This document shows positions 1,978 to 30,196 of a stretch of 42,711 bases of DNA, piece after piece. A model generated the notes under the pieces. It was not told where the DNA came from, did not search any database, and saw only the letters and a list, made by a program, of their open reading frames with translations. A program made the position numbers and the translations under genes. Every line of letters starts with the position of its first letter. The stretch's first letter is position 1. The stretch is from a virus: the IMG/VR virus record IMGVR_UViG_3300028840_000725, positions 1 through 42,711 of that record; one strand, written 5' to 3'.

Positions 1978-1987
1978 TGGTCACACC

Positions 1988-2994: not shown

Positions 2995-3007
2995 CATGAA
3001 TAACACA

Positions 3008-3042
3008 AAGCCCCCCACCCCGCAGCGGGGATGAGGGGCCTT
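3008..3042 (-). terminator. Rho-independent-type terminator after the capsid gene
   Basis: Read on the minus strand, the 3' flank of the capsid gene forms a GC-rich hairpin (arms around AAGGCCCC...TCCCCGC and GCGGGG...GGGGGCTT). It is followed by TTTGTGTTA, a mediocre T tract. It starts about 24 bases after the capsid stop codon. Termination or attenuation here would allow the capsid message to be made in excess of the genes downstream. Confidence 0.65.
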
Positions 3043-3065
3043 GCGGCGAGAACGAGGAAGGGGAC

Positions 3066-4565: not shown

Positions 4566-4613
4566 TGTTATCTCCTTGGTATCTCTCGTTCTCGCTGTGC
4601 CCGTCCGTCGACC

Positions 4614-7800: not shown

Positions 7801-7810
7801 CTTCGTTCTC

Positions 7811-11386: not shown

Positions 11387-14300
11387 CTACAGAGATGAAG
11401 GGTTCCAGCCGCCGCCCCAATCAGGGCCGCCTCCGCCCGGCGAACCGTTCGGTCCACCCCCCAACACCGGAGGCAGTACCTGGAGCGGGTAACCGCCCCC
11501 TGCACCAGCTTGGGGGTTCTCGGGGTAGAACCGGTTTCCCGGCGCTCCCTGGGATCCTCGCTGGTGCGCTGCGGCGGCATGTAGCTGTTCCTCCATCCAA
11601 GCATCGGGAGAATACGACAGCCCCGATAAGATCGGAAGGGGCTGCGTCGCCTGATGCTTGGCCAGAGTGTACAAGCAACCGGCCAAAGCATCTGCAATAT
11701 CTTTGCTGCCACGAGGTGGGTGATCGACTTTCTTCTTCTTCTCGTCTTTCTCCAGCTCCCGCAGCTCCTTGAATAGCCTGGGGTAGTTGTAGAGGTCGAC
11801 CCGATCCTCGTAGAAAGCGGACTTCAGATGCTCGTAAGGGTCCATCTTGGTGTCCACCGACAGGTGCTCCGCGGCGTACCCCTTCTGTTTGAGCTGCTGC
11901 AACGAATCGACGGACTGCCAGGTGTCCATCGTAACCAAGGTGATCATGTAGCCATGGTCGCTCAGGGAGTAGACCAGACGCCTCAGATCTCCCAGGACGA
12001 TCTCGTCCCCCACCGGAGGAACGACCTGCAAAATGAGATCGACGAAGAACCGTGGCTGGCGCTCCTGGAAAACAGAGCCGTCCTCAGCTCGCCGCACAAC
12101 GTCCGTCCACCCCGAGATGTGCGACATGCAAATACCTACCGCGTCCTTCCGGTATGCAGGGTCGATGTGGATGTGCCGGGGGGCCTTCGGGTTCACGATC
12201 GGCTTCAGAGCCTCGTGCACATGACCGGAGAAGTCCTTCATCTGCATCTTGCGGACCATCAGATCCCACAAGAAGGTTCCCGGTCGCGAGGGGTCGTAGA
12301 TCTCAACACTGAAGGGGTGGCGGCGCTCGGCGTTGAAGACCAGCTTCTCGCGACGCTGGATGAACGGGCTGATGGCCACAGTGGCCACGCCCGCAATGTC
12401 CCGAATGGAATTGTGGACCACCACCCCTGCCGACAACGCAAAGTTGTGTACTCCTTCAACAGTGATGTCGTACACGTCAGCCCGACCGGCTGGTTCCACA
12501 CTGACCACCTTGTGGTTGTTACCATCCGCCCGGAGGGACTCCTGACAACGAGGGCAAGTCTCAAACGGTCCGGTGTGCCAACGTGTGTGCAATCCTTTGA
12601 TACGGCCTACACGCATTCTAGGATCTGATCGAACCGCCTCTGCCAGACGTGCCGCCGACGCGGCCCTGTTGGCGGGTTTACGTGCCGGGTTCTGATCTGA
12701 CTTGTTCAACCTCGTGATGTTCTTGGTTCCATTCCGGCTACGCGCCTCCACAATCGCCGCAGACGGATTTTCGGCCCCCCACCCATACGTCTTCCCGACC
12801 TTCCTAGCTACCTCCGAATGATCGTAGGCGTCGCTGTTGTAGACCTCACTAGCCTTCTTCAACGCCGCCAACGACTTCGCCCGTGCTTCTTCCGGATTCG
12901 CCTCACGCCGAGCCTTCCGCCCTGCACGCGCCCGCGCTTTCGACTCTTCAGAGAGCATCCCCTCATGCAAGTACCTCCGATGCAACTCGGCGTGCTCAGC
13001 TTCCGTCATCACCTCCAAATTCCACGGAGAGTTGTCCAGGCGGTCGAAATTGCGATGATGGACAACCAGAGCGCTGCTCAGTGCTCCCCCCTCGTTCAAC
13101 GCCTCCCTGGCTACCAACCGATGCGTATGGATCCACTTACCACCCGCATTTGACTTGATCAGCTCATAGCCATACCTGTCCCTGCGCCAGTACAAAGGCA
13201 TCAAAGAGTCGTCAGGCTGTAGTTCTCCGGCCTCCTTGTACTCCCCGGAACGAAGCATGAACGGGTGGTTGGATGTACAACGGACGACCTCGCCGTTGTC
13301 CAAGGTCACCTGAACCAATTTCGCGTTCTTCCTGGTCAACCTAGCATCGCTACCTCTACCCGGACAAAACCGTCCGTCCGGGGTGTAGGAGTACGTCCAG
13401 AACTCCTCCCGACCTACCAAGTCTTCGATCCGTGCCTCCGTTCCATCCAACAACGGAATAAGAGTGTCTCCAGTCAAGCAACCTTCCAGATCGTGTTCGA
13501 AGTCGAACCGGAAGTCCTCGGGGACTTCGATGAGCGTCACGTCGTCGGGTAGTTGGCTCTTGACCTGCTGCTCCTCGTCCTTCTGAAGAATGCGCGAAGG
13601 GGTCTGCTCGTTGCCGCAGATGACAAAGAACTTCTTGCTGCTGTAGTACGCCGAAGGCTTGACGTCCCATAGCGCGTAGTCTCGGACGAACACGTGAGGG
13701 TCGTTGCGGGACTCCCGGATGCGCCGGGCCGTGAAATCGTCTCGGGTCTTCTTCGACGAGACCAAGAAGATCATTCCGGGCAGCTTCCCGCTGCGGCCGA
13801 AACGGGACTTCATACGACGCATGATACCGGTGTAAAGCATCTCCGCGTGGTCGACGGCGCCGTGGCGCGGGTCTACCTTGCGACCGCGGTCCATGAAGTT
13901 GGTCTCATCGAGCAAAGATCCGATCACGTTGAGACCCAAGGCGGAGGAATCCGTGGTCGCCCTCGCGGCCAACCACACATTGTGCGGGAAGCGGAACTCC
14001 TTCTTCGTGCTCTTGAAGGGGAAGTGCTCCTCGAAGTACGGGCTAGCCTTCAGCTTGGTGGCCACGTTGTCGAACGCGACCTTCATGGCCAAAGCCTCGT
14101 TGACGCTCAAGCACACGATCGAAATGTCGGTGTCCGGTGCGAGTCCGAGAGACCGATGCGGGTCGTTCATGCACGACAGCTCGTAAAGGATGCGGCAGAT
14201 CCCAATCGACGCGAAGAAGGTGTTGTGGATCACGATGCCGTTGGCTACGAAGTTGGTGTCGCCAGGAACCGACAAGTCCACCACGGGCCGCGCCTCAAGC

Positions 14301-15820
14301 TGCTTCAGCTCCCGCACCCGCTCCCACAAGATGTCCGTGTCGGCCAACCACGCGTACTTGCCGCTGTAGTCGCGCTCCTGCACCAAGCGACGAAACCTCT
14401 CACGACTGAGACGCTGCCCTGCGGGACAACCAAAGTCTTGGGTGAGTCGCGCGCCTTGAGCCCCCAACTCTCCTCGGATCTCCCGAAGTTCTTCAATACC
14501 CACCGGCACGATGTCGACGTTGGTGTTCGACTTGGTGCTCACCGCCCGGTCCATGGCAACAGCACACGCCTCTTCCTTCGAGAAGACAGGACCGACCGCT
14601 TCGAGGAAAGCACGCACGTTGTCAGCGCCGCTGATCGAAAGGGTCCACGCGTCGTACTTCTTCTTCTCGATCTTCTTCGGGTTGAAGCACTTCCGAGAAA
14701 GCACCCCCAACCGGAGCAGCAAGAACCGAAGGTCGTCTACCAAACCCTCCGACGCCAACGTCGTCTCGACGGTCCAGGGACCCTGCACACCAATGGACCC
14801 ATCACAGGCCCAGAAACGGTTCAAGAAGAGCGCCACCTGACGATCGGGCAGTAGGTAGAACTCTGCGGGGACGCGTTTCTCCTTGGCGCGAGAATCCATC
14901 CCGTGGCGCTTCACGAGGTGTCGAATACCCTTCACCTGAAGCGTCGTCGCCTGCCCACTATTCGCGCCTTCCGCAACCGTCACCTCGGGCTCGATGTGCC
15001 GGTGAAAACGATCGTACTGAGAAGTGTCAGCGCACACCAGAGCGACTTCGGAGAACTCCTGGAGGACGCCCGGATCCATGTTCGTGAAGGTGGTGTTCCC
15101 GGTACAGCCGCCATCCCCAGCAAGGTACGCCACGAGCTTTACCTCGTCGTCAGAGATCTCAAGGGGCGTGGTTGGCCCCGGCAACCGGCGCGGCGTCGCC
15201 ACGAGGTCGTCCAACCGAAGTTTCGCGGCTGGAACCCAACCACGAGCAGTGAACACCGGGTGGTCGTAACTGAGATCGATGCGTTGCCCTCCGGCGAGCC
15301 GAAGCTGGATGCATTCCTTGGTCCCGGAAGCGAAAGCTGACGCAGACGACACGCACAGCTTCCCGGTGTCCTGATCCATCGACACCACGGACCAATCCTC
15401 TCCGAGGTCACCAGCTCGGCGTCGGCCGCGGGCAGGGTCGAAGATCTCCGTGTCCGGGTCCACGCACTTGCCGTAACCGATGCTGCCGGTGAGCACCGCT
15501 TCCTGGTACTCGCCCCCCTCAAACAGCTCCTTCATGTCCTCCAGAAGCTGCGGATAGAGCACCGCACAGGTGTTGCCGAGGTAGTACTCGTCTTTGACGA
15601 ACGTCTCGATGTCGACCGGGACCCTCTTCCACTCGGCCTCACTGACGAGCTGGATGAGCTGCTTCTCGCCTTCTTCGGGCTCTTCCTCCAACTCGGCGAG
15701 CATGAGCATCAGAGCCTCGCGCTCGTCAGGAGACAGCCCTGCCAGCTCCTTGCGTAGCGTATCCTCGTCCTCTTCGGCCGTTCGTTTGCTGAGGGACCGG
15801 CCGTCCTGGTCGACGATCAC
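11387..15820 (-). CDS. Terminase large subunit with two inteins
   Basis: The 1,477-residue precursor starts at GTG, overlapping the stop of the small-terminase gene (GTGA), with AGGAG upstream. Removing two inteins (residues 119-533 and 781-1137) leaves a 705-residue motor, a normal TerL size. The ATPase domain has the P-loop GSIGYGK/T, split by intein 1 directly before its Thr, and a Walker B region SLLDETNF (about 635-642). The nuclease domain (after about residue 1138) has an RNase H-like Asp set: HIHIDPAYRK, LVTMDTWQS and GSKDIADALAG. The last 60 residues are Gly/Pro-rich. The enzyme translocates DNA into proheads and cuts it. Both inteins must splice for activity, because one breaks the ATP site and the other lies between the two domains. 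Confidence 0.95.
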   Translation of the reverse strand: MIVDQDGRSLSKRTAEEDEDTLRKELAGLSPDEREALMLMLAELEEEPEEGEKQLIQLVSEAEWKRVPVDIETFVKDEYYLGNTCAVLYPQLLEDMKELFEGGEYQEAVLTGSIGYGKCVDPDTEIFDPARGRRRAGDLGEDWSVVSMDQDTGKLCVSSASAFASGTKECIQLRLAGGQRIDLSYDHPVFTARGWVPAAKLRLDDLVATPRRLPGPTTPLEISDDEVKLVAYLAGDGGCTGNTTFTNMDPGVLQEFSEVALVCADTSQYDRFHRHIEPEVTVAEGANSGQATTLQVKGIRHLVKRHGMDSRAKEKRVPAEFYLLPDRQVALFLNRFWACDGSIGVQGPWTVETTLASEGLVDDLRFLLLRLGVLSRKCFNPKKIEKKKYDAWTLSISGADNVRAFLEAVGPVFSKEEACAVAMDRAVSTKSNTNVDIVPVGIEELREIRGELGAQGARLTQDFGCPAGQRLSRERFRRLVQERDYSGKYAWLADTDILWERVRELKQLEARPVVDLSVPGDTNFVANGIVIHNTFFASIGICRILYELSCMNDPHRSLGLAPDTDISIVCLSVNEALAMKVAFDNVATKLKASPYFEEHFPFKSTKKEFRFPHNVWLAARATTDSSALGLNVIGSLLDETNFMDRGRKVDPRHGAVDHAEMLYTGIMRRMKSRFGRSGKLPGMIFLVSSKKTRDDFTARRIRESRNDPHVFVRDYALWDVKPSAYYSSKKFFVICGNEQTPSRILQKDEEQQVKSQLPDDVTLIEVPEDFRFDFEHDLEGCLTGDTLIPLLDGTEARIEDLVGREEFWTYSYTPDGRFCPGRGSDARLTRKNAKLVQVTLDNGEVVRCTSNHPFMLRSGEYKEAGELQPDDSLMPLYWRRDRYGYELIKSNAGGKWIHTHRLVAREALNEGGALSSALVVHHRNFDRLDNSPWNLEVMTEAEHAELHRRYLHEGMLSEESKARARAGRKARREANPEEARAKSLAALKKASEVYNSDAYDHSEVARKVGKTYGWGAENPSAAIVEARSRNGTKNITRLNKSDQNPARKPANRAASAARLAEAVRSDPRMRVGRIKGLHTRWHTGPFETCPRCQESLRADGNNHKVVSVEPAGRADVYDITVEGVHNFALSAGVVVHNSIRDIAGVATVAISPFIQRREKLVFNAERRHPFSVEIYDPSRPGTFLWDLMVRKMQMKDFSGHVHEALKPIVNPKAPRHIHIDPAYRKDAVGICMSHISGWTDVVRRAEDGSVFQERQPRFFVDLILQVVPPVGDEIVLGDLRRLVYSLSDHGYMITLVTMDTWQSVDSLQQLKQKGYAAEHLSVDTKMDPYEHLKSAFYEDRVDLYNYPRLFKELRELEKDEKKKKVDHPPRGSKDIADALAGCLYTLAKHQATQPLPILSGLSYSPDAWMEEQLHAAAAHQRGSQGAPGNRFYPENPQAGAGGGYPLQVLPPVLGGGPNGSPGGGGPDWGGGWNPSSL
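12410..13480 (-). other. Intein 2 of the large terminase, with HNH-type homing endonuclease
   Basis: This intein covers precursor residues 781-1137 (357 aa). It begins Cys (CLTGDTLIPLLDG, block A), has TSNHPF in block B, and ends in a block F/G region DVYDITVEGVHNF with the terminal VVVHN followed by Ser in the extein. The insert carries an HNH-like nuclease (HTHRLVAREAL, then LVVHHRNFDRLDNSPWNLEV), a basic helical stretch, and a CPRC knuckle near the end. It sits at EHDLEG/SIRDIAG, between the ATPase and nuclease domains. All splice-site residues (Cys1, His-Asn at the end, Ser +1) are present, so splicing is expected. Confidence 0.92.
14222..15466 (-). other. Intein 1 of the large terminase, with LAGLIDADG homing endonuclease
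   Basis: This intein covers precursor residues 119-533 (415 aa) and interrupts the Walker A motif between Lys and Thr (GSIGYGK / TFFAS). It starts CVDPDTEIFDPARG (block A), has SYDHPVF in place of the usual TxxH block B, and ends with VVDLSVPGDTNFVANG and the terminal IVIHN. Two dodecapeptide-like motifs, LVAYLAGDGG (about 229-238) and LFLNRFWACDGSI (about 331-343), mark a LAGLIDADG endonuclease. The +1 extein residue is Thr. Insertion at the catalytic loop of an essential ATPase is a classic conserved target. Confidence 0.93.
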
Positions 15821-16659: not shown

Positions 16660-17304
16660 CTACCGCTTCGTGTGCTTGTGGTGGACTCTCTCCACCTTGT
16701 CCAACCGTTCGGCGATGGCCGCGTTGATGGAACGGTTGAGATCAGAAAGGTTGGCCGACACCTTCTTGTAGTAAGGGTGCTTCAGCCACTCGTCGTAAGG
16801 GAGGTTGCCGCGCTTCTTATTGCACTTGCGGCACGACGCCAGAAGGTTGTCCTCCGTCGATGGACCTCCCAGTTCCCAGAGAACAAGGTGGTCTACAGTC
16901 AGCGGGACGTCGTCCTTCCCGCAGTAACGGCAGGCGTAGCGGTCCCGCTTGAAGACCTTCCACGAGACGCCCTGCGAGATCTGCCGAGCGCTCTTACGCA
17001 AGATGATCTTCGACAGCTTCCCGTCCTTCGCTTGCGCCAGCACCTCAGTCTCCATGACGTCGGTCTGCCGGACGAACTTCTGCCACTCCTCCAACGACAT
17101 GGCCAACGTCTCAACCTCGTCCGGAAGCTCAGGACCATCAAACAAGATCGGCTCCCCCTTCCCGAACTCGGTAGTCCCGACATACAGCTCGGCGTCGTCC
17201 TCGGGGAAGAAGCACAACAGCACCTTCCCCTCCCCGCGCCAAATGGCGCCCACGAGCTGGATGGTGTTGCCCACGGAGAGCAGATTCAACTCTGAGAACT
17301 TCAT
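16660..17304 (-). CDS. HNH endonuclease with Cys4 zinc site
   Basis: This 214-residue protein has an HNH domain in its second half: WKVFKRDRYACRYCGK (115-130), LTVDHLVLWELGG with Asp138-His139, EDNLLASCRKCNKKRGN with Asn153, and zinc cysteines 125, 128, 158 and 161. This is the McrA/phage-type ββα-metal nuclease. The N-terminal half is a separate unknown domain. The start (ATG) overlaps the stop of the VanW-like gene (ATGA). It lies just upstream of the terminase genes, where HNH proteins often assist packaging (HK97 gp74 type); a free-standing homing nuclease is the alternative. Confidence 0.85.
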   Translation of the reverse strand: MKFSELNLLSVGNTIQLVGAIWRGEGKVLLCFFPEDDAELYVGTTEFGKGEPILFDGPELPDEVETLAMSLEEWQKFVRQTDVMETEVLAQAKDGKLSKIILRKSARQISQGVSWKVFKRDRYACRYCGKDDVPLTVDHLVLWELGGPSTEDNLLASCRKCNKKRGNLPYDEWLKHPYYKKVSANLSDLNRSINAAIAERLDKVERVHHKHTKR

Positions 17305-18263
17305 GGCTCCTCCGGATACGGATCGTCTTCTGTCTCTTCTTCCCAGTCGGTCGGGACGTACCAGATCTCGTCCACCGGCTTGTACCGACTGATGAACCTC
17401 TTCTCCTCGCCGTTGATCTTCACGACGAGCACGCCTTCCACGCCGAGGGCCGGCTTCTGCTTCTGGCAGCTGTTCGCCCCCTTGTGCAGCACCTTGCGGA
17501 ATCGCTTCTCCGGGTCAGTGGTCTTCCACGAGCGCCACTTCATCGTGACCTTCGGGGGCTCGCCCTCCCCCATGATGACCACCTCCAGCGCGCCCTTCCC
17601 CTCGGGCACTCGTCCGCCGTCTGGACCCTCCACGCCTCCGAGCCCCTTGATGGCTATCGGGGAGTCGTAGGGGTTCTTGATCTTCAGGTCAGGGCAGATG
17701 CGAATGTCCGGCTTCTCCACCCAGCACTCCTCGGGGTAGCTCACCGTGGCGTCCATCCCCTTCGGGATGTAGCTCGACGGGCGTGAGTGGGGTCTACGCT
17801 CGACCACCTCCAGCCCAGCACGCAGCGCCGCCACGAACAGCGTCGAGCTGACCTGGCAGGTGCCGCCGCCGTAGCTCTCCGTCATCTCCCCGAGCACGAT
17901 GGTTGGTGCAGGCAGGTATCCGCGCTCCTTGGTCCGCGGCCCCAAAGCCTCGTTGAAGCTCCACACCTCGCCGGGGGCTACGACGAAGTTGAGCGCCAGC
18001 GCCAGCTTCGTGATGTTGTGGACGCGCCCGTCGTCGAGCCCATCCTTGTAGTAGGTCGTGTAGGCCCCTAGGATCACCTCTCCGTGCTCTTTGGGGGCGG
18101 GAGCGACCTCAGGGACCCCAGCGTCTTCCGGCGCCTCAGAGGCCGTCTGAAGGGCCGTAGCGGGCGGGGCCTCTGGGGCCTCGTGCTGCGTGCCCGAGGA
18201 CGTCAGGACCCCCACCAAGGCGGCAGCGACCGCCACCGCCAGGAACTTCCAGCGCGCCTTCAT
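17301..18263 (-). CDS. VanW-domain protein with N-terminal signal/anchor segment
   Basis: The start is ATG 18261-18263, overlapping the previous stop (ATGA). The 320-residue protein begins MKARWKFLAVAVAAALVGVL, a typical export signal or membrane anchor, followed by an Ala/Pro/Glu-rich linker to about residue 65. Residues about 70-235 match the VanW family closely: RVHNITKLALAL, APGEVWSFNEALGPRTKERG, YGGGTCQVSSTLF and GMDATVSYPE. The C-terminal 80 residues are a beta-rich extension. VanW proteins are found in vancomycin-resistance operons and in many envelope proteins; their biochemical role is not settled. In a phage it may act at the host envelope (lysis, superinfection exclusion, wall modification). 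It is embedded between polymerase and terminase genes. Confidence 0.85.
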   Translation of the reverse strand: MKARWKFLAVAVAAALVGVLTSSGTQHEAPEAPPATALQTASEAPEDAGVPEVAPAPKEHGEVILGAYTTYYKDGLDDGRVHNITKLALALNFVVAPGEVWSFNEALGPRTKERGYLPAPTIVLGEMTESYGGGTCQVSSTLFVAALRAGLEVVERRPHSRPSSYIPKGMDATVSYPEECWVEKPDIRICPDLKIKNPYDSPIAIKGLGGVEGPDGGRVPEGKGALEVVIMGEGEPPKVTMKWRSWKTTDPEKRFRKVLHKGANSCQKQKPALGVEGVLVVKINGEEKRFISRYKPVDEIWYVPTDWEEETEDDPYPEEP

Positions 18264-18739
18264 GGCACCTCGAACGTGGGCCTGGGGTCCCCGTCGCACC
18301 ACAGCACCGGACCGGTGTCCTTCTTGGAAGGCTCCAAGGTAGGCGAGTAGAAAAGCGGCCGGCGAGGAATGATCCGAACGGCCCCGTGAGGAAGCTGCCG
18401 GCGCTCGTACACCGACACGATGATGCCGTTGTGGCACCGCTCGAACTTGTAGCGGGACCGCTTGGTCCACTGGGGGCGGTCGGCCCCTGCAGGCAGACAG
18501 TAGCCTCCCTCCCGTCCGGGGGAGGGGTACTGACGACACAGCTCCCAGTAGGAGGGCTCTCGATTGCGCACGTCATCACGCACAGCTTCGCTCAACCAGT
18601 AGTCAGGATTCTCGGGAAGCTGCTCGGGGGTGTCAGCCGAAGGCCCCACGTAGACCACCACGCCGACCTTCTCCGCCCAACGCCCCCACGAAGCGGAGCG
18701 CCAGACCACCCTGTCCCCGATCTTTAATGCGCTGCCCAC
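18260..18739 (-). CDS. Hypothetical protein following the DNA polymerase gene
   Basis: This 159-residue product starts at GTG, overlapping the polymerase stop by 16 bases, with GGAAG just upstream. The N-terminus has a KOW/SH3-like strand pattern (LKIGDRVVWRSASWGRWAEK, then VGVVVYVG), and the middle is rich in Tyr, Trp and Arg (SRYKFERCHNGIIVSVYERR). There is no signal peptide. The beta-barrel-like start hints at a nucleic-acid or protein-binding domain, but no family is recognised. It is coupled to the VanW-like gene. Confidence 0.7.
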   Translation of the reverse strand: MGSALKIGDRVVWRSASWGRWAEKVGVVVYVGPSADTPEQLPENPDYWLSEAVRDDVRNREPSYWELCRQYPSPGREGGYCLPAGADRPQWTKRSRYKFERCHNGIIVSVYERRQLPHGAVRIIPRRPLFYSPTLEPSKKDTGPVLWCDGDPRPTFEVP

Positions 18740-21431: not shown

Positions 21432-21860
21432 TCACCAGACGTCCTCGGGCTCTTCGACCCACCACTCTTCCAACACGTCTTGAATGAGCGCATTCTTCAG
21501 AATGCCTATATCCGTAATAGCTGCCAGGGAATCCGAAGCTCGGATGAACCCTCCATCTAGCAGCTTCTTCCACAGGCTCATAGTCAAAGGCTCGAAGCGA
21601 AAGACTTCGCCTTCCTCGATGCTGGTGTCCTGCACCTCGGTGATGTCGTTCTCCGCCTTGACCACGTCCCCGAAAAGAGTGTGGCCCCCCTGGAAGCTGC
21701 CGTCCGCAGCTAGCCACTCGATGGACCTCTCCTTCTGCTTAGTACCGGGGTTGACGTGGCCCTCCACCACCCGCACCCCAACGGCGATGTCGATGCCGTT
21801 GTAGTCCCCCGGAGGAGCGGTAACCACGTAGACGTCCCGGAACCTGAACTTAGGCTGCAT
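21432..21860 (-). CDS. Hypothetical protein downstream of the giant protein
   Basis: The 142-residue product has a good ribosome site (GAGAGG, then CGAA, then ATG) and overlaps the end of the giant gene by 11 bases. The N-terminal half is beta-rich (FRDVYVVTAPPGDYNGIDIA; GVRVVEGHVNP) with an EWLAADGSFQGG stretch. The C-terminal half is acidic and helical, with two Trp near the end (VLEEWWVEEPEDVW). No family recognised. Coupling to the giant gene suggests a functional partner, for example an immunity, chaperone or accessory protein; this is inference. Confidence 0.72.
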   Translation of the reverse strand: MQPKFRFRDVYVVTAPPGDYNGIDIAVGVRVVEGHVNPGTKQKERSIEWLAADGSFQGGHTLFGDVVKAENDITEVQDTSIEEGEVFRFEPLTMSLWKKLLDGGFIRASDSLAAITDIGILKNALIQDVLEEWWVEEPEDVW

Positions 21861-24800
21861 TTCGCCTCTCCGTCATCATGGGCTCGACGTACTTCTTGTA
21901 GATCTCCTCGTTGGAGCCGCCCACGACGACGAGATCTTCCACCGGCAGCCCGTTCACTTCCTCGATGCCTGCAGCTCGAAGGTCTTTGATGACCTTCTTC
22001 CGCGTCGTCTCGTTCGCTACGTTGAGCCGAAGGATGCTTGTGGGAGAGATGCCTCGGCGGAACGAGATCTCGTGCGAGCTGCCCTGGCTAGCCAGCCCCT
22101 CTACACGCTTCTCCAAAGACTGCCTCTTGTTCCACACCGACCCCGACTTCGTGCCGTTGTTGTAAGGCGTGCAAGTGCCGTAGCAATCGCCGTAATGCAT
22201 GTAGGCGTCGAGGCGTTCCAGCTCGCGCGGGTCGAAGATGACCTGAACCTGCTTACTGAAGCTGTAGGACCCAGGGCTCTTCCCGCCTTGGGCCGAGTGC
22301 GCCACGTAACCCAACACGCCATCGCCTGAACCCGTCTTCACGTCCTGGCTGTACGATACGCCAGTCTTGGGAACGCCGGCCGCGTTGCGCTCATTGATGC
22401 CCAGCGCCCCGCGCTGGACGATGGAAACGATCGACCCCAGGTCGGCGCCGTGGAAAACGAAACGTGCGCCCTTCTCGCGCAGCTTCTTCCAGCGACCCTT
22501 CTCCACATGTGTCGAAAACCCCGGAAGCACCTCACGCAGCTCAGTGTTTTCGATCTCTTCCTGAGACACACCCTTGGACTTCAGCTTCTTGCGAAGGTTC
22601 TTGACGGTCCGATCCTTCTCCTCCAGCTTGTCTGCCATCTGCGGTGCCCGCGCCCACAGGAGTTGGCTGAGCTTCCAGATCTCCTTCTCCTCGGGCGTCG
22701 CGGTCCGAAGCACGTCCTTCGCCAACCCAGGCTTCATCTCCTCCAACAACTCCGCCAGCGCATCGTAAGGTGACTGTCCTGGCTTGGGGCGAACCTTCGC
22801 CTGAACCATGCCCACGTAGGAGTACTTGTCGGAGGACTTGTTATCCTCACTGCCAGGAACCAAATGGATGTCCGAGGATCCCACCGCCCAACGTCGAGCA
22901 TTGGCGGTGTCGATGGTCGAGCCCGTTTCGACGTAGGCGTCCTTTGCCTCGATGTACTCCGACTGCTTGAACTTTAGCGTGGAGGGCTCGCCAGTCCCCG
23001 AGTCCCGCAGAGCTTCCCAGATCTCCGGGCGCAGCTTGAACTGGAAACCGAAGTACGATCCGTTCTTGTCCTCGTAACGGCGTGCCCGCAGAGAACTTCC
23101 CTCCACCGCTGTACCATCCGACTCGTAGCGCTTCCCTCCACGTCCCGTCGAGATGTTCTGAAGGTTCTTGATCTCTTCGGTGTTCGAAGAGGCCACCGCG
23201 TGCTCGTAGTCGTCTGGGAAGTAACGGGGGGTCTTGGGCGTCGGAGCGATGTCGCCCGGCTTGACCGGCTGCTGGATCTCCTCGTAGTCCACCGTGGCGT
23301 TGTTGAACTCCTCGGCGTTCACGAAGAGCATCGTGTAGTAGCCGCCCTTGACTGGCGTAGTGTTCAGAGGGGACACCCCCGTCTTCGCCAGCATCTTCTC
23401 CAGCTTCTTCTGCCCGTTGGTGTCGCTGTTGGCTACCTTCACCGTGAGCTTGGAGGGGTCCTTACCTGTCTGAGGGTCGTCGAACTCCTCCCACTTCATC
23501 GTGGTGTCGTGCTCGGACGCAAAGACCTTGATGTAGTCCTTGGCCGAGACAGTGTGCTTGATGACCTTGGGTCCTTCTTCACTCGGCTTGTCTCCGGACC
23601 ATCCGGCGTCGAAGGTGAAATTGCCGTCGTCTCCGGTCTTCTTCCGATACAGCTCGGTGAAGAACCTCTCGAAGTCCTTCCGGATGTCGAGCTTGCGGCG
23701 CCGCGCGGCCTTCAAGAACTCAAGCTGCTTGTCCGGCTTCCCCGGCCACATGGTCTCCGCGTAGGGCTTCATCATATCGATGTATTCCTTCACGGGGATG
23801 GCATCGATCTTTTCGACCGTCTCCTGAAGTCCCTTCGGGTCCATGTCGTAGTCACCCTTGACCCAGCCGCTCCAAACCTTGTTGTAGAAGGGCGGGTTCT
23901 CGCCGTAGAGATCGGAGTTCGGCGCGTAGTCGATGCTCAGCTTGTCCGAGCCGAAGAAGCGAAAGCCCTGCTCCTTGTCGACCGAGAAGATCTTCCCATC
24001 CTCAGCTCGACGGATGAAGTTGGCCGCGTGGCTGTCGTGCTGACTCATCAGCCAGTCGAGCACATGCTCCTTGGCGATGGTCGAACGGTCCTCGTCGGAC
24101 AGCGTCTTTGGATCCACCCCGCGAAGGTCAGGCTGCTTGGCGTCTCGTTCCACCAGCGGCTGCAACGTACCGAGGGCCTTCTTGCCACCAGGGCCTGATA
24201 CCTCCATCGCCGCAATGGGTAGATGCTCCCCGCGCGCGCGAAGTGCTACCTGGGACCACACTTGCTGCGCCATCATGGCGTAGGGCTTTGCCGCACTGCT
24301 GCTGCCCTTGGCGTAGGCATGCTTGTGAAGCCACTTGTTCCCGTCCTTGTCCGTGTACGTGTACTTCGTTCCAGCGCCTCCAAGGTGATTGGCGCTCCCC
24401 TCCAACGTGAGGTCTTCGGGGCTCGGAACACCCTTCGGTAGCGGCGTCGCCTTGATGACGTCCACAGCATCCTTAGCCGAAGACGGAACTGGCGTAGGCG
24501 GGGCAGGCGGAGGGGCCGGCTCGGGCATGGGGAAGTTTTCCGTGGGGCCTGAAGGAGCGGCTTCTGCGGGCTCCCCTTCGACAGACTTCCCCGTCTCCAC
24601 GATGTTGAACTTGCCCTTGCCCTTGATGGGCTTTCCGGTCTTCTTGTCGTAGACAATGCCGTCGTTGGGGTCGATGTACTCATTCTCGATGATCCCCACG
24701 ACCTTCCACACCTCCTTGGACACGGGATGCACGAACTCGTCCACCGCCAGGCCCAAGGTGCCCTGCGCTGAAGCGGCTTGTGCCGCGGTCGGGTGCTCCT

Positions 24801-27800
24801 TACCCTTCGCAGGCTTGGCGTTCCACGGAAGAACCAGAACGCCGCTCGCTTCCATCTCCTCCAGAGTGGGGGCCGGCTCGGCGGCCTTGGGCTTGTACGG
24901 ATCCTCCGGCTTCTTCTCCGCTAGATCCTTGTGGTAAGCCGCAGACTCGGCCCACTTCTCCGCCGTCGCTTCATTGCCCTTGTCCTTGTGGATCTTAGAT
25001 AGCGCCTCCGCAACCTGCGCCGCCTTCCCGTGGTCCTCGTCCTCCAAAGCCTGCTGGAATACCTCTTCCAGCTTCATCACCTGAGAGTCGGACAGATCCT
25101 TCTCTGCCAGTTCGGTTACCTTCCCGATGGACAAAGAGGCATCGAACAGCTCGTCGCCGATCTTCTTCGACTCCTCTGCGTCAGGGGAAACAGCCGAGGC
25201 GATCACGTTCTTGCCGACATCGTCCGAGAGCTTCCCCCACAGCTCCGCTCCTGCCGCGTCGCCCTTGGCCGCTAGGGCTCCCGACAGCTTCTTGGCGACG
25301 TTTGCAGCCTGTACGAAGTCGTTGGCCTTGTGCGCGGCCGAGTACTGCTCCGCCAGCTTGTCGACGTCAGCGTTGGAAGGAACCTCGCCCGCCTCTGCGC
25401 CTCCCGCTTCCGCTGCGTACTCGTCTTGGATCTCCTTCCAGTACGTAGCCTTCTTGCCGTTCTTCTTGAACTGGTAGTGGGCCACCATGACCGCCGCGAA
25501 CTTGGCGGCATCGCCCGGCTTGCCTGTGTGCAGAGATACCTCGAACCCGTCCCTCACCTTCCCCAAAGACGCCTTCCCCATCTTCGAGGCGTTCTCCATC
25601 AGAAAGTCGAAGTCGCCGTTCTGCGCAGCCTTGTCCGCCACGGCTGCCTTGACGTAGCCGTACTTGGTGTAGGCGGACTCTCCCTGCGCTTCAGCAGCAG
25701 CCTTCGCCGATGGAGGAGCTTCCTTCCCCATCTTCTCCGCCGCGAAAGCCTGCTCGCCCTGCCAGTTTCCCAAAACCGCCTGGTACGTGTCCGCCAGCGA
25801 CTCGGGCAGCTCCTCTCCAGCGAGCTTGGACTCATAGTGCGCCACCATGACCCCAGCTATCTTGGCGGCTTTCCCCCAGTCCCCAAAAGACTGCGCGTCG
25901 GTGTATGCCTCCAGCACTCCTGACTTGTCCTGCAACTTGCCGGCGTGCGCAGCTAGGAAGTCCAAGTCCCCCTTGTCCAAGGCTGCGTTAACAGCCATAG
26001 GCGTCAGATTCCCCGCAGCGTTGAACGGCTCTGGCACGGGCGAAGAGACTTCCTTCCCCGCGAGCTTGGCGTACTTCTTCGATTCGTTCTCCCAGAACGG
26101 GGCCGCGGGGGAGTCCTCGTGCTTGTACGACTCGGCAATGGCCTCGGCGATCTTCGCGGCGTTGCCCCAATCCTGGTCGGACTCCAGCTTCGTGAGAGCT
26201 TCCCCGAGGGTGCCGCGCTGTTGCGCCGACAACTTCTCGGCGTTAGCCACCATGTAGTCGGCGTCGCCCTGCGCCAGCGCTTCGGAGAACGCCTCCCCGT
26301 GATCGGCCTGCGCCTGGAAGTTCTTGGCCTTGGCCTTCAGCTTCTGCGCGGACTTCTCCTCACCCTTCTGCTCCTGAACCTCCGCGAGAGCCGTGAGAAG
26401 GTTCGCCGCCTTCTCGTACTCGCCCGCTTCTGCCGCTTCCTCTGCTCCATTCGCGATGAGGTACTTCTCGTCCAGCCCCAACGAGTCCGCGTTTTTCTTG
26501 ATCGCCTCGGTGTCCCCCGAAGCGATGGCGCTGCTCAACTCGTTCTGCGCGAATCCTGGTCCGAGCTGCTGGGCCTTCTTCGCCCACTGCGTGGCGGCGT
26601 AGTCATCCTTCAGCTGGGTCTCTACCTCAGAGATCGCCTTAGCTAGATCAGACGCCTTTTCGTACTCGCCCACATCGAACAGCTTCTCGTGCGCGTCCTT
26701 TACGTTGTCGATCTGGTCCGCGCTCAGCTTCGTGGCGTTGTTGATGAGCTTCTGGTAGTTGCCGTCAGAGACCGCTTGATCGATCTCTGAGTCGTCCATC
26801 GGCGAAGGCTGCGCCTCCTTTGCTTTGGTCTCCCACTTCTCCGCTTCGACCCCCATGGCTTCCGCCATGGTGTCCTCGCCCAGCGCCTCGTAGGTCTTCT
26901 TCAGCGCACCACACCCCTCCGCCACCTTCTGCGCCTTCTCCGCGGTGGGGTCCTTCTCGGCCGCGACCATCATGTCCGCCACGTGCCCGCAGAACTTGCT
27001 CTTCTGGTGAGGCGTCAGCTTGGTGGCGTTATCCACGATCGCATCGTAGTTGCCGGAGCTGAGGGCGTCGTCTACCTGGACGTCGCTGACCGCATCCTTC
27101 GCCGCCGCCTGATCCTCTGCCTTCTTCTTGTAGCTCTCCGCGGCCTGAGCATAGGACTCAACCATGCTCGGAATGCCGTGCTCCTTGTAGGAGTCCGAGA
27201 GAATCGAAGCCAGCTCGGACGCCTTGCTCCAGTTGCCGTCCTGAATGGCGAACTCCATGTCAGCGGCCACGAACTTTCGCGCGGCCCCGAGCTTCGTGGC
27301 GTTCTGCTTCAGCGTGGCGATGTCTCCGGCCTCAACAGCGTCTTTGACCTGAGGAACCGACATCTCGACGGGTAGGCCCGCGAGCTTCTTGGCCTCTTCG
27401 GCGTCCTCCTTCCAGAACTTGGCCGAAATATCCTCCCCACGCGCCTGCTGGATCTCCGCCATGGCCTCGGCCACGCTTGCGGCCTTCTTGTGATCGTCTC
27501 CAGCCGATGCGGCGTTGAACGCGTTGGTGACGGTATTGATCTGCTCTGGAGTAAGCTCCTTGGCACTCGCTACGACCTGGCTCCAATCACCGGAAACAGA
27601 CGCAGCCTGAATAGCATCGTCCCCAATCGGCCCCCCAGGCTCCGCAGCCTTGGGCTTCTCGGGCTCTGGAGGCGCCGGCTCTTCCCCGCTCGCCTTCTTC
27701 GCAAACTCCTGCGCCTTGTCCGCCCACGCCTTGGTGAACGCGTGGCTAGCACCCTTCGTCTTCTCGAATGCCTTCGCCAACACCCCAGCGAGCTTGGCCG

Positions 27801-28584
27801 CCTTCTCGTAGTCCCCCGAGTCATGGGCGCCGAGGGCCGCCTTCTTCAGCTCCTCGCGCCCCTTGATCCCCAACTTCTCAGCGTTCTGATCCAACTTGTC
27901 GATGTCCCCAGCCTTGGCGGCCTGCGCCACCTCGTCCGGAGTCATCACGAGAGCAGGCTTTGCGGGCTCCGCAGGGGCCTCTGGAGGCGCTTCTGGCTCT
28001 GCCGGGGGCTCGGGGGCCTCGGGCTCCTTCGGCGCCTCTGGAGGCGTCTCAGGGGCCTTGGCGGGCTCGTCCGCCTTGGGGAGCCCGGACAGGCCGACAG
28101 CCTTCGGGATCTCCTTCGGGATGGGCTCGCCGGCAGCAACCGCCTTCTGGAAGGTGTCCTGAGGCTTCAGGCCCATGGCCTTGACCTTCTTGGCAAGGTT
28201 CTTCAGCGCAACGGAAGGCACCCACACGTCGGCCCCCATCTCGGGAACTGTCTCCTTGCCTGGCAGGGGCTTGATGTCGGTGGTGCTTCCGGTGAAGCTC
28301 GCAGGGTCGGAGATGTCCCCCACCGGGGGGTACTCATCCGTGGTCCCCTCTGGGGGGTCCATCAGGTCGCTCGCGTGCTTGTGGAGGTTCTTCGACGAAA
28401 TCCACGCGGGCTTGGGGCCGGACTTGTAGTTCTTCCAGACCAAGATCTTCTTGTTGCCGGAGTCGTCCGTCTTGACTCCGATGATCTTGACCTCATTGAC
28501 GAAGCCGGTGCTTTCGAGCAGGACGCCTGCGGCGTCCTCCCACAGAGCCAGTCCCGCGGGGCGCGCGAAGAAGATCTCGTCCAT
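21850..28584 (-). CDS. Giant multidomain protein: helical repeats, kinase-like domain, ART-like C-terminus
   Basis: This 2,244-residue protein has an ATG that overlaps the previous stop (TGATG). Order: a unique N-terminal domain (1-165); a Pro/Glu/Ala linker (170-212); about eleven helical repeats of 75-95 residues (about 215-1225), each with a GDYEKAAKLA-like core; a spacer domain (1240-1335); a Pro linker; then a kinase-like domain (about 1390-1640) with GGAGTKYTY, a Lys in KWLHKHA, catalytic-loop DWLMSQHDSHAANF (Asp1517, Asn1522) and SVDKEQGF (Asp1536). Two further unknown regions follow. A C-terminal domain (about 2040-2190) with FVFHGADLGSIVSIVQRG, GVSYSQD and SSHEISFRRG (Glu2172) is reminiscent of ADP-ribosyltransferases. 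Similar kinase and ART modules occur in phage minor head proteins and injected effectors (T4 Alt). Virion or host-attack roles are inferred; activity is not established. Confidence 0.88.
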   Translation of the reverse strand: MDEIFFARPAGLALWEDAAGVLLESTGFVNEVKIIGVKTDDSGNKKILVWKNYKSGPKPAWISSKNLHKHASDLMDPPEGTTDEYPPVGDISDPASFTGSTTDIKPLPGKETVPEMGADVWVPSVALKNLAKKVKAMGLKPQDTFQKAVAAGEPIPKEIPKAVGLSGLPKADEPAKAPETPPEAPKEPEAPEPPAEPEAPPEAPAEPAKPALVMTPDEVAQAAKAGDIDKLDQNAEKLGIKGREELKKAALGAHDSGDYEKAAKLAGVLAKAFEKTKGASHAFTKAWADKAQEFAKKASGEEPAPPEPEKPKAAEPGGPIGDDAIQAASVSGDWSQVVASAKELTPEQINTVTNAFNAASAGDDHKKAASVAEAMAEIQQARGEDISAKFWKEDAEEAKKLAGLPVEMSVPQVKDAVEAGDIATLKQNATKLGAARKFVAADMEFAIQDGNWSKASELASILSDSYKEHGIPSMVESYAQAAESYKKKAEDQAAAKDAVSDVQVDDALSSGNYDAIVDNATKLTPHQKSKFCGHVADMMVAAEKDPTAEKAQKVAEGCGALKKTYEALGEDTMAEAMGVEAEKWETKAKEAQPSPMDDSEIDQAVSDGNYQKLINNATKLSADQIDNVKDAHEKLFDVGEYEKASDLAKAISEVETQLKDDYAATQWAKKAQQLGPGFAQNELSSAIASGDTEAIKKNADSLGLDEKYLIANGAEEAAEAGEYEKAANLLTALAEVQEQKGEEKSAQKLKAKAKNFQAQADHGEAFSEALAQGDADYMVANAEKLSAQQRGTLGEALTKLESDQDWGNAAKIAEAIAESYKHEDSPAAPFWENESKKYAKLAGKEVSSPVPEPFNAAGNLTPMAVNAALDKGDLDFLAAHAGKLQDKSGVLEAYTDAQSFGDWGKAAKIAGVMVAHYESKLAGEELPESLADTYQAVLGNWQGEQAFAAEKMGKEAPPSAKAAAEAQGESAYTKYGYVKAAVADKAAQNGDFDFLMENASKMGKASLGKVRDGFEVSLHTGKPGDAAKFAAVMVAHYQFKKNGKKATYWKEIQDEYAAEAGGAEAGEVPSNADVDKLAEQYSAAHKANDFVQAANVAKKLSGALAAKGDAAGAELWGKLSDDVGKNVIASAVSPDAEESKKIGDELFDASLSIGKVTELAEKDLSDSQVMKLEEVFQQALEDEDHGKAAQVAEALSKIHKDKGNEATAEKWAESAAYHKDLAEKKPEDPYKPKAAEPAPTLEEMEASGVLVLPWNAKPAKGKEHPTAAQAASAQGTLGLAVDEFVHPVSKEVWKVVGIIENEYIDPNDGIVYDKKTGKPIKGKGKFNIVETGKSVEGEPAEAAPSGPTENFPMPEPAPPPAPPTPVPSSAKDAVDVIKATPLPKGVPSPEDLTLEGSANHLGGAGTKYTYTDKDGNKWLHKHAYAKGSSSAAKPYAMMAQQVWSQVALRARGEHLPIAAMEVSGPGGKKALGTLQPLVERDAKQPDLRGVDPKTLSDEDRSTIAKEHVLDWLMSQHDSHAANFIRRAEDGKIFSVDKEQGFRFFGSDKLSIDYAPNSDLYGENPPFYNKVWSGWVKGDYDMDPKGLQETVEKIDAIPVKEYIDMMKPYAETMWPGKPDKQLEFLKAARRRKLDIRKDFERFFTELYRKKTGDDGNFTFDAGWSGDKPSEEGPKVIKHTVSAKDYIKVFASEHDTTMKWEEFDDPQTGKDPSKLTVKVANSDTNGQKKLEKMLAKTGVSPLNTTPVKGGYYTMLFVNAEEFNNATVDYEEIQQPVKPGDIAPTPKTPRYFPDDYEHAVASSNTEEIKNLQNISTGRGGKRYESDGTAVEGSSLRARRYEDKNGSYFGFQFKLRPEIWEALRDSGTGEPSTLKFKQSEYIEAKDAYVETGSTIDTANARRWAVGSSDIHLVPGSEDNKSSDKYSYVGMVQAKVRPKPGQSPYDALAELLEEMKPGLAKDVLRTATPEEKEIWKLSQLLWARAPQMADKLEEKDRTVKNLRKKLKSKGVSQEEIENTELREVLPGFSTHVEKGRWKKLREKGARFVFHGADLGSIVSIVQRGALGINERNAAGVPKTGVSYSQDVKTGSGDGVLGYVAHSAQGGKSPGSYSFSKQVQVIFDPRELERLDAYMHYGDCYGTCTPYNNGTKSGSVWNKRQSLEKRVEGLASQGSSHEISFRRGISPTSILRLNVANETTRKKVIKDLRAAGIEEVNGLPVEDLVVVGGSNEEIYKKYVEPMMTERRNAA

Positions 28585-29309
28585 CAGATGACCTCGGCGT
28601 CGCCAATCTCACCACGCCACGGCGGGTTCCACCGGAGCATCGAGCCCTCGTCCAACCGTGCTTCCAGCGCCATGGCCTCCCAAGCGCGGTTGGACAGCTC
28701 GACCACCCTTCGGATGATCCCGTTCGTCCGTGCGTAGACGTTGATGCCCACCGAGTCCCTGAAGTTCAGCCCGTCCTGGATGATCTCCGATACAAACTCG
28801 TTGCTCGGCGTCTCCTTGCTCTTGGCGGCCTCCCGGAACATCCGGGACGCAGAGGCGCCCTTCTCCAACATGTCTCGCCACCCGCCGATGGCGTTCCTCG
28901 CGGCCTTCTCCAACTGCTTCCTGATCTCATCGTCCGACATCGACGTGAGGTTAGCAGGGGACTTCAATTTCTTGGGCCACGGACGGTACGTCGGAAGGTC
29001 CAACTGCTCGCCCAGCTTGTCCATGAAAAGCATGGCATCCTTGTGCGACGAGTAGAACTTGTTGGTCAGAGGAACGAACTTCGTCATGACCCCCGAGACG
29101 TCCGAGTTGGCACGCCTGGAGGCCACCGGGTCATCGGCCTTCGCCGCCTTCGAAGCCGCCTGCGCCGCCTGTGTCAGAAGTTCCAAGTACTGATCGCCCA
29201 TTCGGATGGTCTTGCGCCAGGCGTCAGCGACGCGAACCGAGGGGGTTCGGATGGCGTTCGACTCCATCAGAGCCCGAGCAACGGCGATGTTCTCCTGTAG
29301 AGAGCGCAT
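28584..29309 (-). CDS. Helical hypothetical protein coupled to the giant gene
   Basis: The start is ATG 29307-29309 behind TAGGAG, eight bases away; an in-frame ATG at 29348 has a weaker site. The product of 241 residues is almost entirely helical, with no signal, membrane or catalytic motif visible. Segments include YLELLTQAAQAASKAAKADD, a WPKKLKSPANLTS hinge, and RKQLEKAARNAIGGWRDMLE. The stop overlaps the giant gene's ATG by one base. It may be a chaperone or structural partner of the giant protein, inferred from coupling only. Confidence 0.75.
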   Translation of the reverse strand: MRSLQENIAVARALMESNAIRTPSVRVADAWRKTIRMGDQYLELLTQAAQAASKAAKADDPVASRRANSDVSGVMTKFVPLTNKFYSSHKDAMLFMDKLGEQLDLPTYRPWPKKLKSPANLTSMSDDEIRKQLEKAARNAIGGWRDMLEKGASASRMFREAAKSKETPSNEFVSEIIQDGLNFRDSVGINVYARTNGIIRRVVELSNRAWEAMALEARLDEGSMLRWNPPWRGEIGDAEVI

Positions 29310-29374
29310 GGGAGATCTCCTAGCTAGCGGATTCCGGGGGACTCCCATCTTCTACCACACAACAGGAGATCCGG

Positions 29375-30196
29375 TCAGCTGGCGTCTATCTCTGCGTCGA
29401 TCTCTTCGTCCTCGATCTGCTCGGCTTTCTTTAGCCACTCTTCGGTGACCTCCCCGACGACCTCGTTCACATCGCGACCCCAGCTCCGGCAGACCTCCAT
29501 CACCCGATCCATCACCCGCTTGGTCTTCTTGCTCATGGCAATGTACAGGTGTTCCTTGCCTCCGTAGTCGAACACCATGAACGAGTACTCCAACGTGTCG
29601 CCGTACTCGTTGAACAGGTGGTTCAAGACGTGCCCCAAGTCGTTGACGGTCTTGGCGTCCTTCGTGGCTTCCTCGAACTTGTCCTGCGCCTGCTTAGGCA
29701 TGCCGGCTGACTTCATGCCCTTCTTCATCTGCTTGACGATCTTCTGCCACCCCGCCTTGTCCGTGTAGGCGAACATCCGACGCATCGCCTTGTCGCCGTA
29801 CTTGGCGGCCATCTCCCGATGAAGCGCCACCATCTTCTCGGGGTTGATGCGACCGTGCAGCGTGTTGAGCCGGACCGTGACGAACTTCTGCAAGTCCTCG
29901 TCCGTCCAGCGCTCGTGAGACAACAGGACGCAAGGGATCTTCTTCAGCCCCAGCACCTTGGCGGCCTGCCACCGATGTGCCCCACCGATGATCCGGTAGG
30001 AGCCGTCCACCATCGGGACGACCTGTGGGTAGTCGATGAAGCCCACCTCCTTGATGTTCTCAACGAGCATGTCGAACTCCTCGGAGTTCATCTCGTTGGG
30101 ATTCCAAGCGACCGGCTCCATGTCGTCCACGTCGATCGTCGCGGAGTCCGCGATGTTGACGTCAACCGACCCTTCTTGTTCAGCAGCCTCAGTCAC
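29375..30196 (-). CDS. ParB-like N-terminal domain protein
   Basis: The GTG start overlaps the previous stop (GTGA). The 273-residue protein has a ParB/Srx-type domain in its first 110 residues: WNPNEMNSEEFDMLVENIKE, then IDYPQVVPMVDGSYRIIGGA and the signature GGAHRWQAAKVLG (71-83). That signature is the nucleotide-binding part in ParB CTPases and in related nucleases and kinases. The rest is unlike plasmid ParB (no clear HTH) and ends in a very acidic tail (EDEEIDAEIDAS). It may be a DNA-binding regulator, nuclease or modification accessory. Neighbours are a small helical gene and a 313-residue gene that may belong to the same system. Confidence 0.82.
   Translation of the reverse strand: MTEAAEQEGSVDVNIADSATIDVDDMEPVAWNPNEMNSEEFDMLVENIKEVGFIDYPQVVPMVDGSYRIIGGAHRWQAAKVLGLKKIPCVLLSHERWTDEDLQKFVTVRLNTLHGRINPEKMVALHREMAAKYGDKAMRRMFAYTDKAGWQKIVKQMKKGMKSAGMPKQAQDKFEEATKDAKTVNDLGHVLNHLFNEYGDTLEYSFMVFDYGGKEHLYIAMSKKTKRVMDRVMEVCRSWGRDVNEVVGEVTEEWLKKAEQIEDEEIDAEIDAS

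What the first reader, a model, noticed from the sequence alone, without database searches (positions are those of the whole stretch)
21850..28584. A 2,244-residue protein combining helical repeats, kinase-like and ART-like domains in the DNA-metabolism half
Seen: one uninterrupted 6.7-kb gene with a repeat array, two Pro-rich linkers, a kinase-like module and a C-terminal module with an H...SYS...E pattern. Known: kinase-like and ADP-ribosyltransferase modules occur in phage minor head proteins and in injected effectors such as T4 Alt. Inferred: this is a virion-carried or early host-takeover effector. Its place is unusual, coupled to ParB-like/SSB/RuvC-side genes and far from the head cluster. 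The combination with about eleven helical repeats may be undescribed.
Basis: partly seen in the sequence, partly recalled or inferred. Interest (0 to 1): 0.82.

Follow-up and report, generated by a model that had tools for sequence, protein, structure and literature searches.

The report
Giant phage protein, kinase plus ADP-ribosyltransferase
A large tailed phage carries one 2,244-residue protein that joins a variable helical repeat arm to a kinase and an ADP-ribosyltransferase-like enzyme, a pairing that recurs in phage proteins, some of them head proteins, and so looks like a cargo injected into bacteria at infection.

Summary
One 2,244-codon ORF (minus strand, 21850-28584) encodes a lineage-specific N-terminal domain, a Pro-rich stretch, 11 helical repeats (10 full, 1 partial), a second Pro-rich stretch, a kinase and a C-terminal ART-like domain. 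Predicted structures match the kinase to PI4KII-alpha, CtkA and HipT (best Z 14.0) and the C-terminus to DarT ADP-ribosyltransferases (best Z 11.5). Family libraries name neither in this protein.

The kinase is a recurrent phage module. Of 33 other IMG/VR loci, 25 have an ART C-terminal to it: 16 DarT-like, 9 of the ADPrib_exo_Tox type. Ten carry an N-terminal minor-head domain (MuF or VG15). The window protein has no detectable MuF. Its block (ParB, 254-aa gene, giant, small gene) is conserved; TerL lies 6 kb away, so 'far from the head cluster' is overstated. Repeat number varies: one (borderline), three to four, eleven.

Best reading: a head-packaged, injected two-enzyme effector of the polyvalent/MuF-ART kind. 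Packaging is inferred from relatives, not shown. New variant of a known kind.

The parts
21850..28584 (-). giant ORF, 2,244 aa
   Evidence: relatives in the same gene order in two other contigs
28075..28584 (-). N-terminal domain, aa 1-170; seen only in this phage lineage (L013, L070)
   Evidence: about 55% identity in L013 and L070; no match in the phage collection
27946..28074 (-). Pro/Ala/Glu-rich linker 1, aa 171-213
24922..27945 (-). array of 11 helical repeats (10 full, 1 partial), aa 214-1221
   Evidence: own HMM; identities; helical in the model, which starts at aa 901
24550..24909 (-). small beta-containing module, aa 1226-1345; also in L070, where it lies before the repeats
24460..24549 (-). 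Pro-rich linker 2, aa 1346-1375
23611..24441 (-). kinase domain of PI4KII/CtkA/HipT type, aa 1382-1658; K1421, D1517 and D1536 conserved
23296..23550 (-). alpha-beta module, aa 1679-1763 (common arrangement, best Z about 6, not diagnostic)
22507..23187 (-). region between kinase and ART, aa 1800-2026, unidentified
21880..22506 (-). DarT-fold ART-like domain, aa 2027-2235; invariant S2077, D2081, R2124, D2126, D2133, E2172
28584..29348 (-). 254-aa gene directly upstream, overlapping by one base; precedes the giant gene in L013 and L070 too
   Evidence: no Pfam or PHROG match
21432..21860 (-). 142-aa gene directly downstream, overlapping the giant's end by 11 bases; divergent homologues in the same place in L013 and L070; candidate immunity or partner protein
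   Evidence: no Pfam match
29375..30196 (-). ParB-like nuclease gene of the same conserved block
11387..15820 (-). terminase large subunit with two inteins, 6 kb downstream of the giant gene
   Evidence: intein-free L013 counterpart 36% identical to annotated terminases

Best explanation
The gene encodes a two-enzyme, injected-type effector. Shown computationally: a kinase of the PI4KII/CtkA/HipT fold with its catalytic lysine and aspartates, followed by a C-terminal ADP-ribosyltransferase fold closest to DarT with an invariant glutamate, both behind an expandable helical-repeat arm. Inferred: the protein is made late or together with the packaging genes, enters the head (relatives would do so through a fused MuF or VG15 minor-head domain; here through the N-terminal domain and/or the 254-aa partner), is ejected with the DNA, and in the host phosphorylates and ADP-ribosylates host components at the start of infection. 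The small downstream gene would protect the producing cell or hold the enzyme inactive until packaging. The repeat arm would be a spacer or binding scaffold whose length changes fast.
For: Folds: kinase PI4KII-alpha Z 14.0 over 241 aa, CtkA 13.9, actin-fragmin kinase 11.2, HipT 9.6, Foldseek E down to 1.5e-4, 71 matches at E 0.001 or better; ART DarT1 Z 11.5 over 162 aa, other DarTs 8.9-10.8, Tpt1 7.6, Foldseek best E 2.3e-3.
Catalytic residues: D1517 and D1536 invariant in 27 of 27 aligned kinases, K1421 in at least 90%; E2172 in 13 of 13 ARTs.
Architecture: ART C-terminal to the kinase in 25 of 33 other loci (24 of the 27 whose frame ends inside the contig; six of these, L018-L021, L023 and L026, differ by at most 2 residues; collapsed, 19 of 22). 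MuF N-terminus in 5 and VG15 in 5 of 33 (one, L040, partial); L014, L015 and L017 are MuF-kinase-DarT-like ART.
Context: ParB, 254-aa gene, giant and small gene together in 3 of 3 contigs of this lineage; PolA-TerL-portal beyond it in window and L013. A terminase was found on the locus in L013, L028, L029, L035 and L040 (5 of 28 loci tested, few query proteins).
Phage: tail sheath and tube genes, head protease, portal and major head genes. Published survey: phage ARTs enriched in myoviruses and about 44% in head-packaging contexts (PMC9503650, section read).
Against: No MuF found in the protein or its contig. The gene sits beside replication genes in its lineage, which also fits a non-packaged early or middle protein. 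ART: no Foldseek match below E 0.001 in the PDB; comparison with DarT by profile is not significant (hhalign probability 1.4%); no Pfam ART or NCBIfam match; first-strand His in 2 of 13; model mean pLDDT only 68. Kinase: Pfam hits in relatives are all below cut-off and HipA in the PDB by sequence only E 0.76. Three relatives with intact 3' ends lack a detected ART (L022, L024, L036). In 23 of 28 loci no terminase was seen with the queries used. Targets are unknown.
Confidence: 0.55

Rival explanations
1. A host-takeover enzyme made inside the infected cell with the replication genes and never packaged: kinase and ART act on host or phage replication proteins or DNA during early or middle infection.
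For: Place after RuvC/SSB/ParB in three contigs and before PolA in two; no MuF found; closest ART fold is DarT, which acts on DNA (DarT activity as told in PMC9503650 passages).
Against: MuF or VG15 fusions in 10 of 33 relatives; same strand as TerL and portal, 6 kb away; very long repeat arm is unusual for a plain cytosolic enzyme (inference).
Confidence: 0.25
2. A polymorphic-toxin-like weapon: the C-terminal ART is a toxin and the small downstream gene its immunity protein, used in superinfection exclusion or killing of competitors rather than takeover. (Not exclusive of packaging.)
For: A small gene overlaps or abuts the giant's 3' end in 3 of 3 own-lineage contigs (homologous, E 1e-6 to 4e-10) and in 6 of 6 of the L033/L034/L037/L039/L042/L043 group, there with a different small protein; two kinds of C-terminal ART are exchanged behind the same kinase; MuF toxins are published (PMC5576092, abstract and one section read).
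Against: Small genes have no Pfam match and could be ordinary packaging or assembly proteins; integrases were not sought; no toxicity data.
Confidence: 0.25
3. A structural head or tail protein in which kinase and ART folds are dead relics.
For: Repeat arm and Pro-rich linkers would suit a structural protein (inference); first-strand His absent in 11 of 13 ARTs.
Against: Kinase Asp residues invariant in 27 of 27 and Lys in at least 90%; ART Glu invariant in 13 of 13 while flanking sequence drifts.
Confidence: 0.08

Closest known systems
MuF/VG15 minor-head proteins fused to an ADP-ribosyltransferase (Mycobacterium phage McProf gp54; the related Onyinye gp16; Microbacterium phages Percival and Goodman in PMC7302621)
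   Same: Same kinase domain (31% identity) followed by an ART at the C-terminus in McProf and Onyinye; gene near TerL and portal
   Different: Their ART is of the ADPrib_exo_Tox type; McProf has VG15 at the N-terminus, Onyinye no detected head domain; no match to the repeat HMM. Their annotation names the ART or minor capsid part only. For the Microbacterium phages the kinase was not looked for.
Polyvalent proteins of phages and conjugative elements (Iyer et al. 2017, PMC5512222; passages read)
   Same: Several effector domains in one very long polypeptide, ARTs and kinases among them; phage members often thought to be packaged
   Different: The kinases described there lack the C-terminal lobe and the ART family described there is H-Y-D; its other named domain families were not searched for here
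DarT (PF14487) DNA ADP-ribosyltransferases
   Same: Best solved-structure match of the C-terminus, Z 11.5; conserved Glu falls on a conserved Glu of DarT in a weak, non-significant profile alignment
   Different: No Pfam match, other invariant residues (S, D, R-x-D, D); a DarG partner was not looked for
CtkA, HipT/HipA and PI4KII kinases
   Same: Same fold, catalytic Lys and Asp residues by motif
   Different: About 10% identity; fused to an ART
Phage T4 Alt (head-packaged ART; recalled and in passages of PMC5512222)
   Same: Proposed logic: ART delivered with phage DNA
   Different: No sequence comparison made here; Alt has no such kinase or repeats (recalled)

Membership tests
PI4KII/CtkA/HipA-type kinases | kinase fold of this group | tested here: met
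   Z 14.0 PI4KII-alpha, 13.9 CtkA, 9.6 HipT; kinase part of model pLDDT mostly above 90
PI4KII/CtkA/HipA-type kinases | ATP-binding Lys and catalytic/metal Asp residues | tested here: met
   K1421 at least 90%, D1517 and D1536 27 of 27; the role of each residue is by analogy (recalled)
PI4KII/CtkA/HipA-type kinases | curated family score (Pfam HipA_C, PI3_PI4_kinase) | tested here: not met
   no hit in the window protein; sub-threshold hits in some relatives
ART superfamily | ART fold | tested here: met
   DarT, Tpt1 and KptA matches; best Foldseek E 2.3e-3 and moderate model confidence
ART superfamily | active-site triad (H-Y-[EDQ], H-H-h or R-S-E) | tested here: inconclusive
   E invariant, H in 2 of 13, Y in 2 of 13; S, D and R-x-D invariant instead
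DarT (PF14487) | match to the family profile | tested here: not met
   no hit; profile comparison not significant
MuF toxins (Jamet 2017) | N-terminal MuF domain | tested here: not met
   no hit in the protein or its contig; present in relatives L014-L017 and L031
Polyvalent proteins (Iyer 2017) | two or more effector domains in one long phage or mobile-element protein | tested here: met
   kinase and ART folds, 2,244 aa
Polyvalent proteins (Iyer 2017) | sign of capsid packaging | tested here: inconclusive
   6 kb from TerL; relatives with MuF or VG15; no direct sign in this protein
Kinase family of polyvalent proteins (Iyer 2017) | loss of the C-terminal kinase lobe | tested here: not met
   helices continue to model residue 750 and align with PI4KII-alpha to model residue 742
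Polymorphic toxin systems | downstream immunity gene | tested here: inconclusive
   small gene in place in 3 of 3 and 6 of 6 contigs of two groups, function unknown

The most novel reading that the evidence does not exclude
Kinase and ART form one functional cartridge that phages pass between different delivery domains, and the two steps are coupled: the kinase phosphorylates a target and the ART, whose fold family includes enzymes that act on phosphates (Tpt1/KptA) and on DNA (DarT), then ADP-ribosylates the same target. The ART would be a new clade with an unorthodox S/D/R-x-D/E active site, and the repeat arm a length-variable tether.
Probability: 0.1. Interest if true: 0.88.

Novelty: new variant of a known kind. 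Interest (0 to 1): 0.6.

Why it matters
Phages deliver enzymes with their DNA, but few such cargoes are known. Here a kinase that family profiles do not name in this protein proves to be a frequent companion of ARTs in giant and head-associated phage proteins, while the ART type, the N-terminal domain and the repeat arm are exchanged. That gives a testable set of candidate injected two-enzyme effectors in cultivated phages (Onyinye was isolated on the laboratory strain M. smegmatis mc2 155), a DarT-fold ART group with an unusual conserved residue set, and a candidate immunity gene beside it.

Tried and rejected
Sequence-only family calls: Pfam, PHROGs, NCBIfam and the PDB sequences name neither enzyme in P0001. 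The one Pfam hit at E up to 1, RecX_HTH1 at aa 1987-2013 (E 4e-4), is below its cut-off and was rejected; four PHROG hits at E 0.06-0.72 were taken as chance. PDB profile searches with the kinase alignment gave only E above 0.1, HipA at 0.76; with the ART alignments one chance match each.

DNA-level and protein searches: no nucleotide match in phages; ART alone no match in phages; N-terminal domain no match in phages; 254-aa gene no match in phages and only E 0.54 in the PDB; genome-contig scan with the kinase alignment gave only two small MAG contigs.

Capsid-targeting idea: a conserved N-terminal 'RPxGxxLWE' stretch resembles a T4-type L-x-E cleavage site (recalled). A pattern scan of the contig showed no second clear case beside the giants, so it is left as an idea only. 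The xxE list printed by that call was not used.

Rejected: sequencing chimera (same gene order in L013 and L070). TerL label: PHROG hits of the window gene were intein-driven; PHROG and PDB searches of the L013 counterpart or its pieces gave nothing; settled. A first reading of L014 as carrying a related TerL was wrong: the match is to the first intein only, and L014 was dropped from the terminase count.

Not excluded: families not listed by the structure searches. The repeat array before aa 901 and the N-terminal domain were not modelled. Only part of most relative contigs was read.
Full report
OBSERVATION. The ORF at 21850-28584 is on the minus strand, 2,244 aa, uninterrupted. The window (an IMG/VR record of 42,711 bases) corresponds to positions 74908-117618, reverse strand, of a 126,260-base contig IMGVR_UViG_3300017971_000214; the stretches compared, window 1-8000 and 13853-36584, are 100% identical. 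The contig's first and last 15-30 bases do not recur at its other end. So the phage is larger than the window, and 'half of the genome' statements drawn from the window are unsafe. The contig holds tail sheath and tail tube genes; the window holds major head, head protease and portal genes, the capsid protein being of the kind found in T4-like and related large myoviruses ('T4-like' is recalled). It is a myovirus-like phage; host unknown.

ANATOMY. N-terminal domain (aa 1-170), Pro-rich linker, 11 repeats (aa 214-1221), small beta-containing module, Pro-rich linker, kinase (1382-1658), alpha-beta module (1679-1763), an unidentified region, ART-like domain (2027-2235). The repeat HMM was seeded with 7 units; the other 4 were found by it (first-round E 6e-11 to 3e-3), and 5 shuffles gave none. 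The model of aa 901-1665 shows helices across the repeats it covers.

KINASE. A four-sequence alignment (window and three Mycobacterium phage proteins found by tblastn) was extended to 27 rows; it contains closely related rows. The model (aa 901-1665, mean pLDDT 76.8, kinase part mostly above 90) matches protein kinases by Foldseek (best E 1.5e-4; the first 50 rows are ordinary protein kinases). Re-aligned, it ranks PI4KII-alpha first (Z 14.0, 4.2 A, 241 aa), then CtkA 13.9, actin-fragmin kinase 11.2, LepB 10.5, two entries of a bacterial Ser/Thr kinase 10.1-10.2, VPS34 10.0, HipT 9.6; receptor-type protein kinases begin at 7.9. This is a re-ranking of Foldseek's own list.

ART. The model of aa 1665-2244 (9 sequences, mean pLDDT 68.2, pTM 0.59) gives DarT1 8baq as best PDB match (E 2.3e-3, probability 1.00; no match below 0.001). 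Re-aligned: Z 11.5 over 162 aa, five further DarT entries at 9.3-10.8 and one at 8.9, Tpt1 7.6, then a small permuted ribosomal protein at 6.3, an effector ART (8htc; that it is an ART is recalled) at 6.2 and KptA at 6.0. In viral predicted structures the best is a Bacillus phage SP-15 protein (E 3.1e-4), with a minor capsid protein at rank 9. Across 13 distinct domains, S2077, D2081, R2124, D2126, D2133 and E2172 never vary, whereas H2045 (also in L070) and Y2078 (also in L013) are in 2 of 13 each (five loci differing by at most 2 residues in the whole protein from L018 were left out). So the fold is well supported; catalysis with NAD+ is likely but unproven.

RELATIVES. The kinase alignment found 34 loci in IMG/VR, one being this phage. 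With my own HMMs, of the 33 others: DarT-like ART in 16 (six of them near-identical), ADPrib_exo_Tox-type ART in 9, none in 8. Of those 8, five are cut at the contig end (L016, L032, L038, L044, L045) and three are not (L022 of 293 aa, L024 of 431 aa, and L036, whose contig has phage Phrappuccino's length and whose protein by eye carries ART-like repeats that I did not test). MuF N-terminus in 5 (L014-L017, L031), VG15 in 5 (L029, L030, L035, L040, L041; L040 partial). The MuF, VG15 and exo-type ART models were built from regions that Pfam reports in L014, L017, L027, L029, L031, McProf and Onyinye, so those are not independent. L018 has a weak head-morphogenesis hit (E 0.0022). The DarT-like HMM was trained on part of these loci; L014, L015 and L017 were not in the training set and score E 2e-29, 4e-22 and 1e-30. 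In plasmids, 28 records match, 25 of them Streptomyces, the listed matches lying in the kinase; in the two looked at it ends a protein of about 800-900 aa, with ParB/relaxation or phage-like genes nearby.

LINEAGE AND SYNTENY. L013 and L070 keep the block RuvC-SSB-313-aa gene-ParB-254-aa gene-giant-small gene-g20469; L013 continues to PolA-TerL-portal. L070's locus ends soon after the giant, so its TerL side was not seen. Repeat units: 11 in the window, 3 clear and 1 very weak in L070, one at borderline score in L013 (E 0.04). The neighbours of the giant are tightly packed: one-base overlap upstream, 11-base overlap downstream. The downstream gene has divergent homologues in the same place in L013 and L070 (27-35% identity); a different 111-114-aa gene takes that place in six other relatives. 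Elsewhere a terminase was found on the locus in L028, L029, L035 and L040; in all, L013 included, 5 of 28 loci tested (three of the 28 are second cuts of the same contigs).

MECHANISM. Best reading: head-packaged, injected two-enzyme effector (0.55). Steps shown: folds, conserved catalytic residues, recurrent order, head-domain fusions in relatives. Steps inferred: packaging of this protein, host targets, role of repeats and of the two neighbours. The odds of the toxin-immunity rival overlap with this one, as the two do not exclude each other.

LITERATURE. PMC5512222: passages on ARTs, kinases and contexts read. PMC9503650: two sections and passages. PMC5576092: abstract and one section. PMC7302621: passages. 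PMC11699363: abstract, start of the introduction and outline. Other papers were seen in search listings only. No paper linking this kinase type to ARTs or MuF was seen in eight searches (three of them returned nothing, and searches listed only the best part of their hits), in a library without most subscription journals.

VERDICT. A sound and useful first-stage call, with three corrections (strand and place, motif, novelty). New variant of a known kind; interest 0.6.

Noticed in passing
11387-15820 (-) and 34738-36978 (-): TerL carries two inteins (two Intein_splicing stretches; inserts absent in L013), and the RecA-like gene carries a LAGLIDADG_2 insert with a sub-threshold Intein_splicing hit, so probably a third.
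   Followed up: partly
L014:2739-3950: A stretch related to the first TerL intein of the window (26% identity, E 2e-25) in a phage whose giant protein is MuF-kinase-ART.
   Followed up: no
17301-18539 (-) and 16660-17304 (-): A VanW-domain protein (Pfam E 8.5e-38) and an HNH endonuclease gene lie between PolA and TerL; neither was found in the syntenic L013 at E 1e-8.
   Followed up: no
L033, L034, L037, L039, L042, L043: Giant proteins of 2.1-2.8 kaa with the kinase near the N-terminus and DarT-like ART at the end, and a conserved 111-114-aa gene overlapping or abutting the 3' end.
   Followed up: partly
L038 aa 173-452 and 493-774: Two kinase domains in tandem in one phage protein.
   Followed up: no
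L078, L079 (Streptomyces and Mycolicibacterium plasmids): The same kinase type matches in 28 plasmid records; in the two viewed it ends a hypothetical protein with ParB/replication-relaxation or phage-like genes nearby.
   Followed up: partly
L006:7938-14027 (Phrappuccino gp195): Kinase at the N-terminus followed by what looks by eye like three ART-type modules; Pfam gives no ART hit.
   Followed up: no
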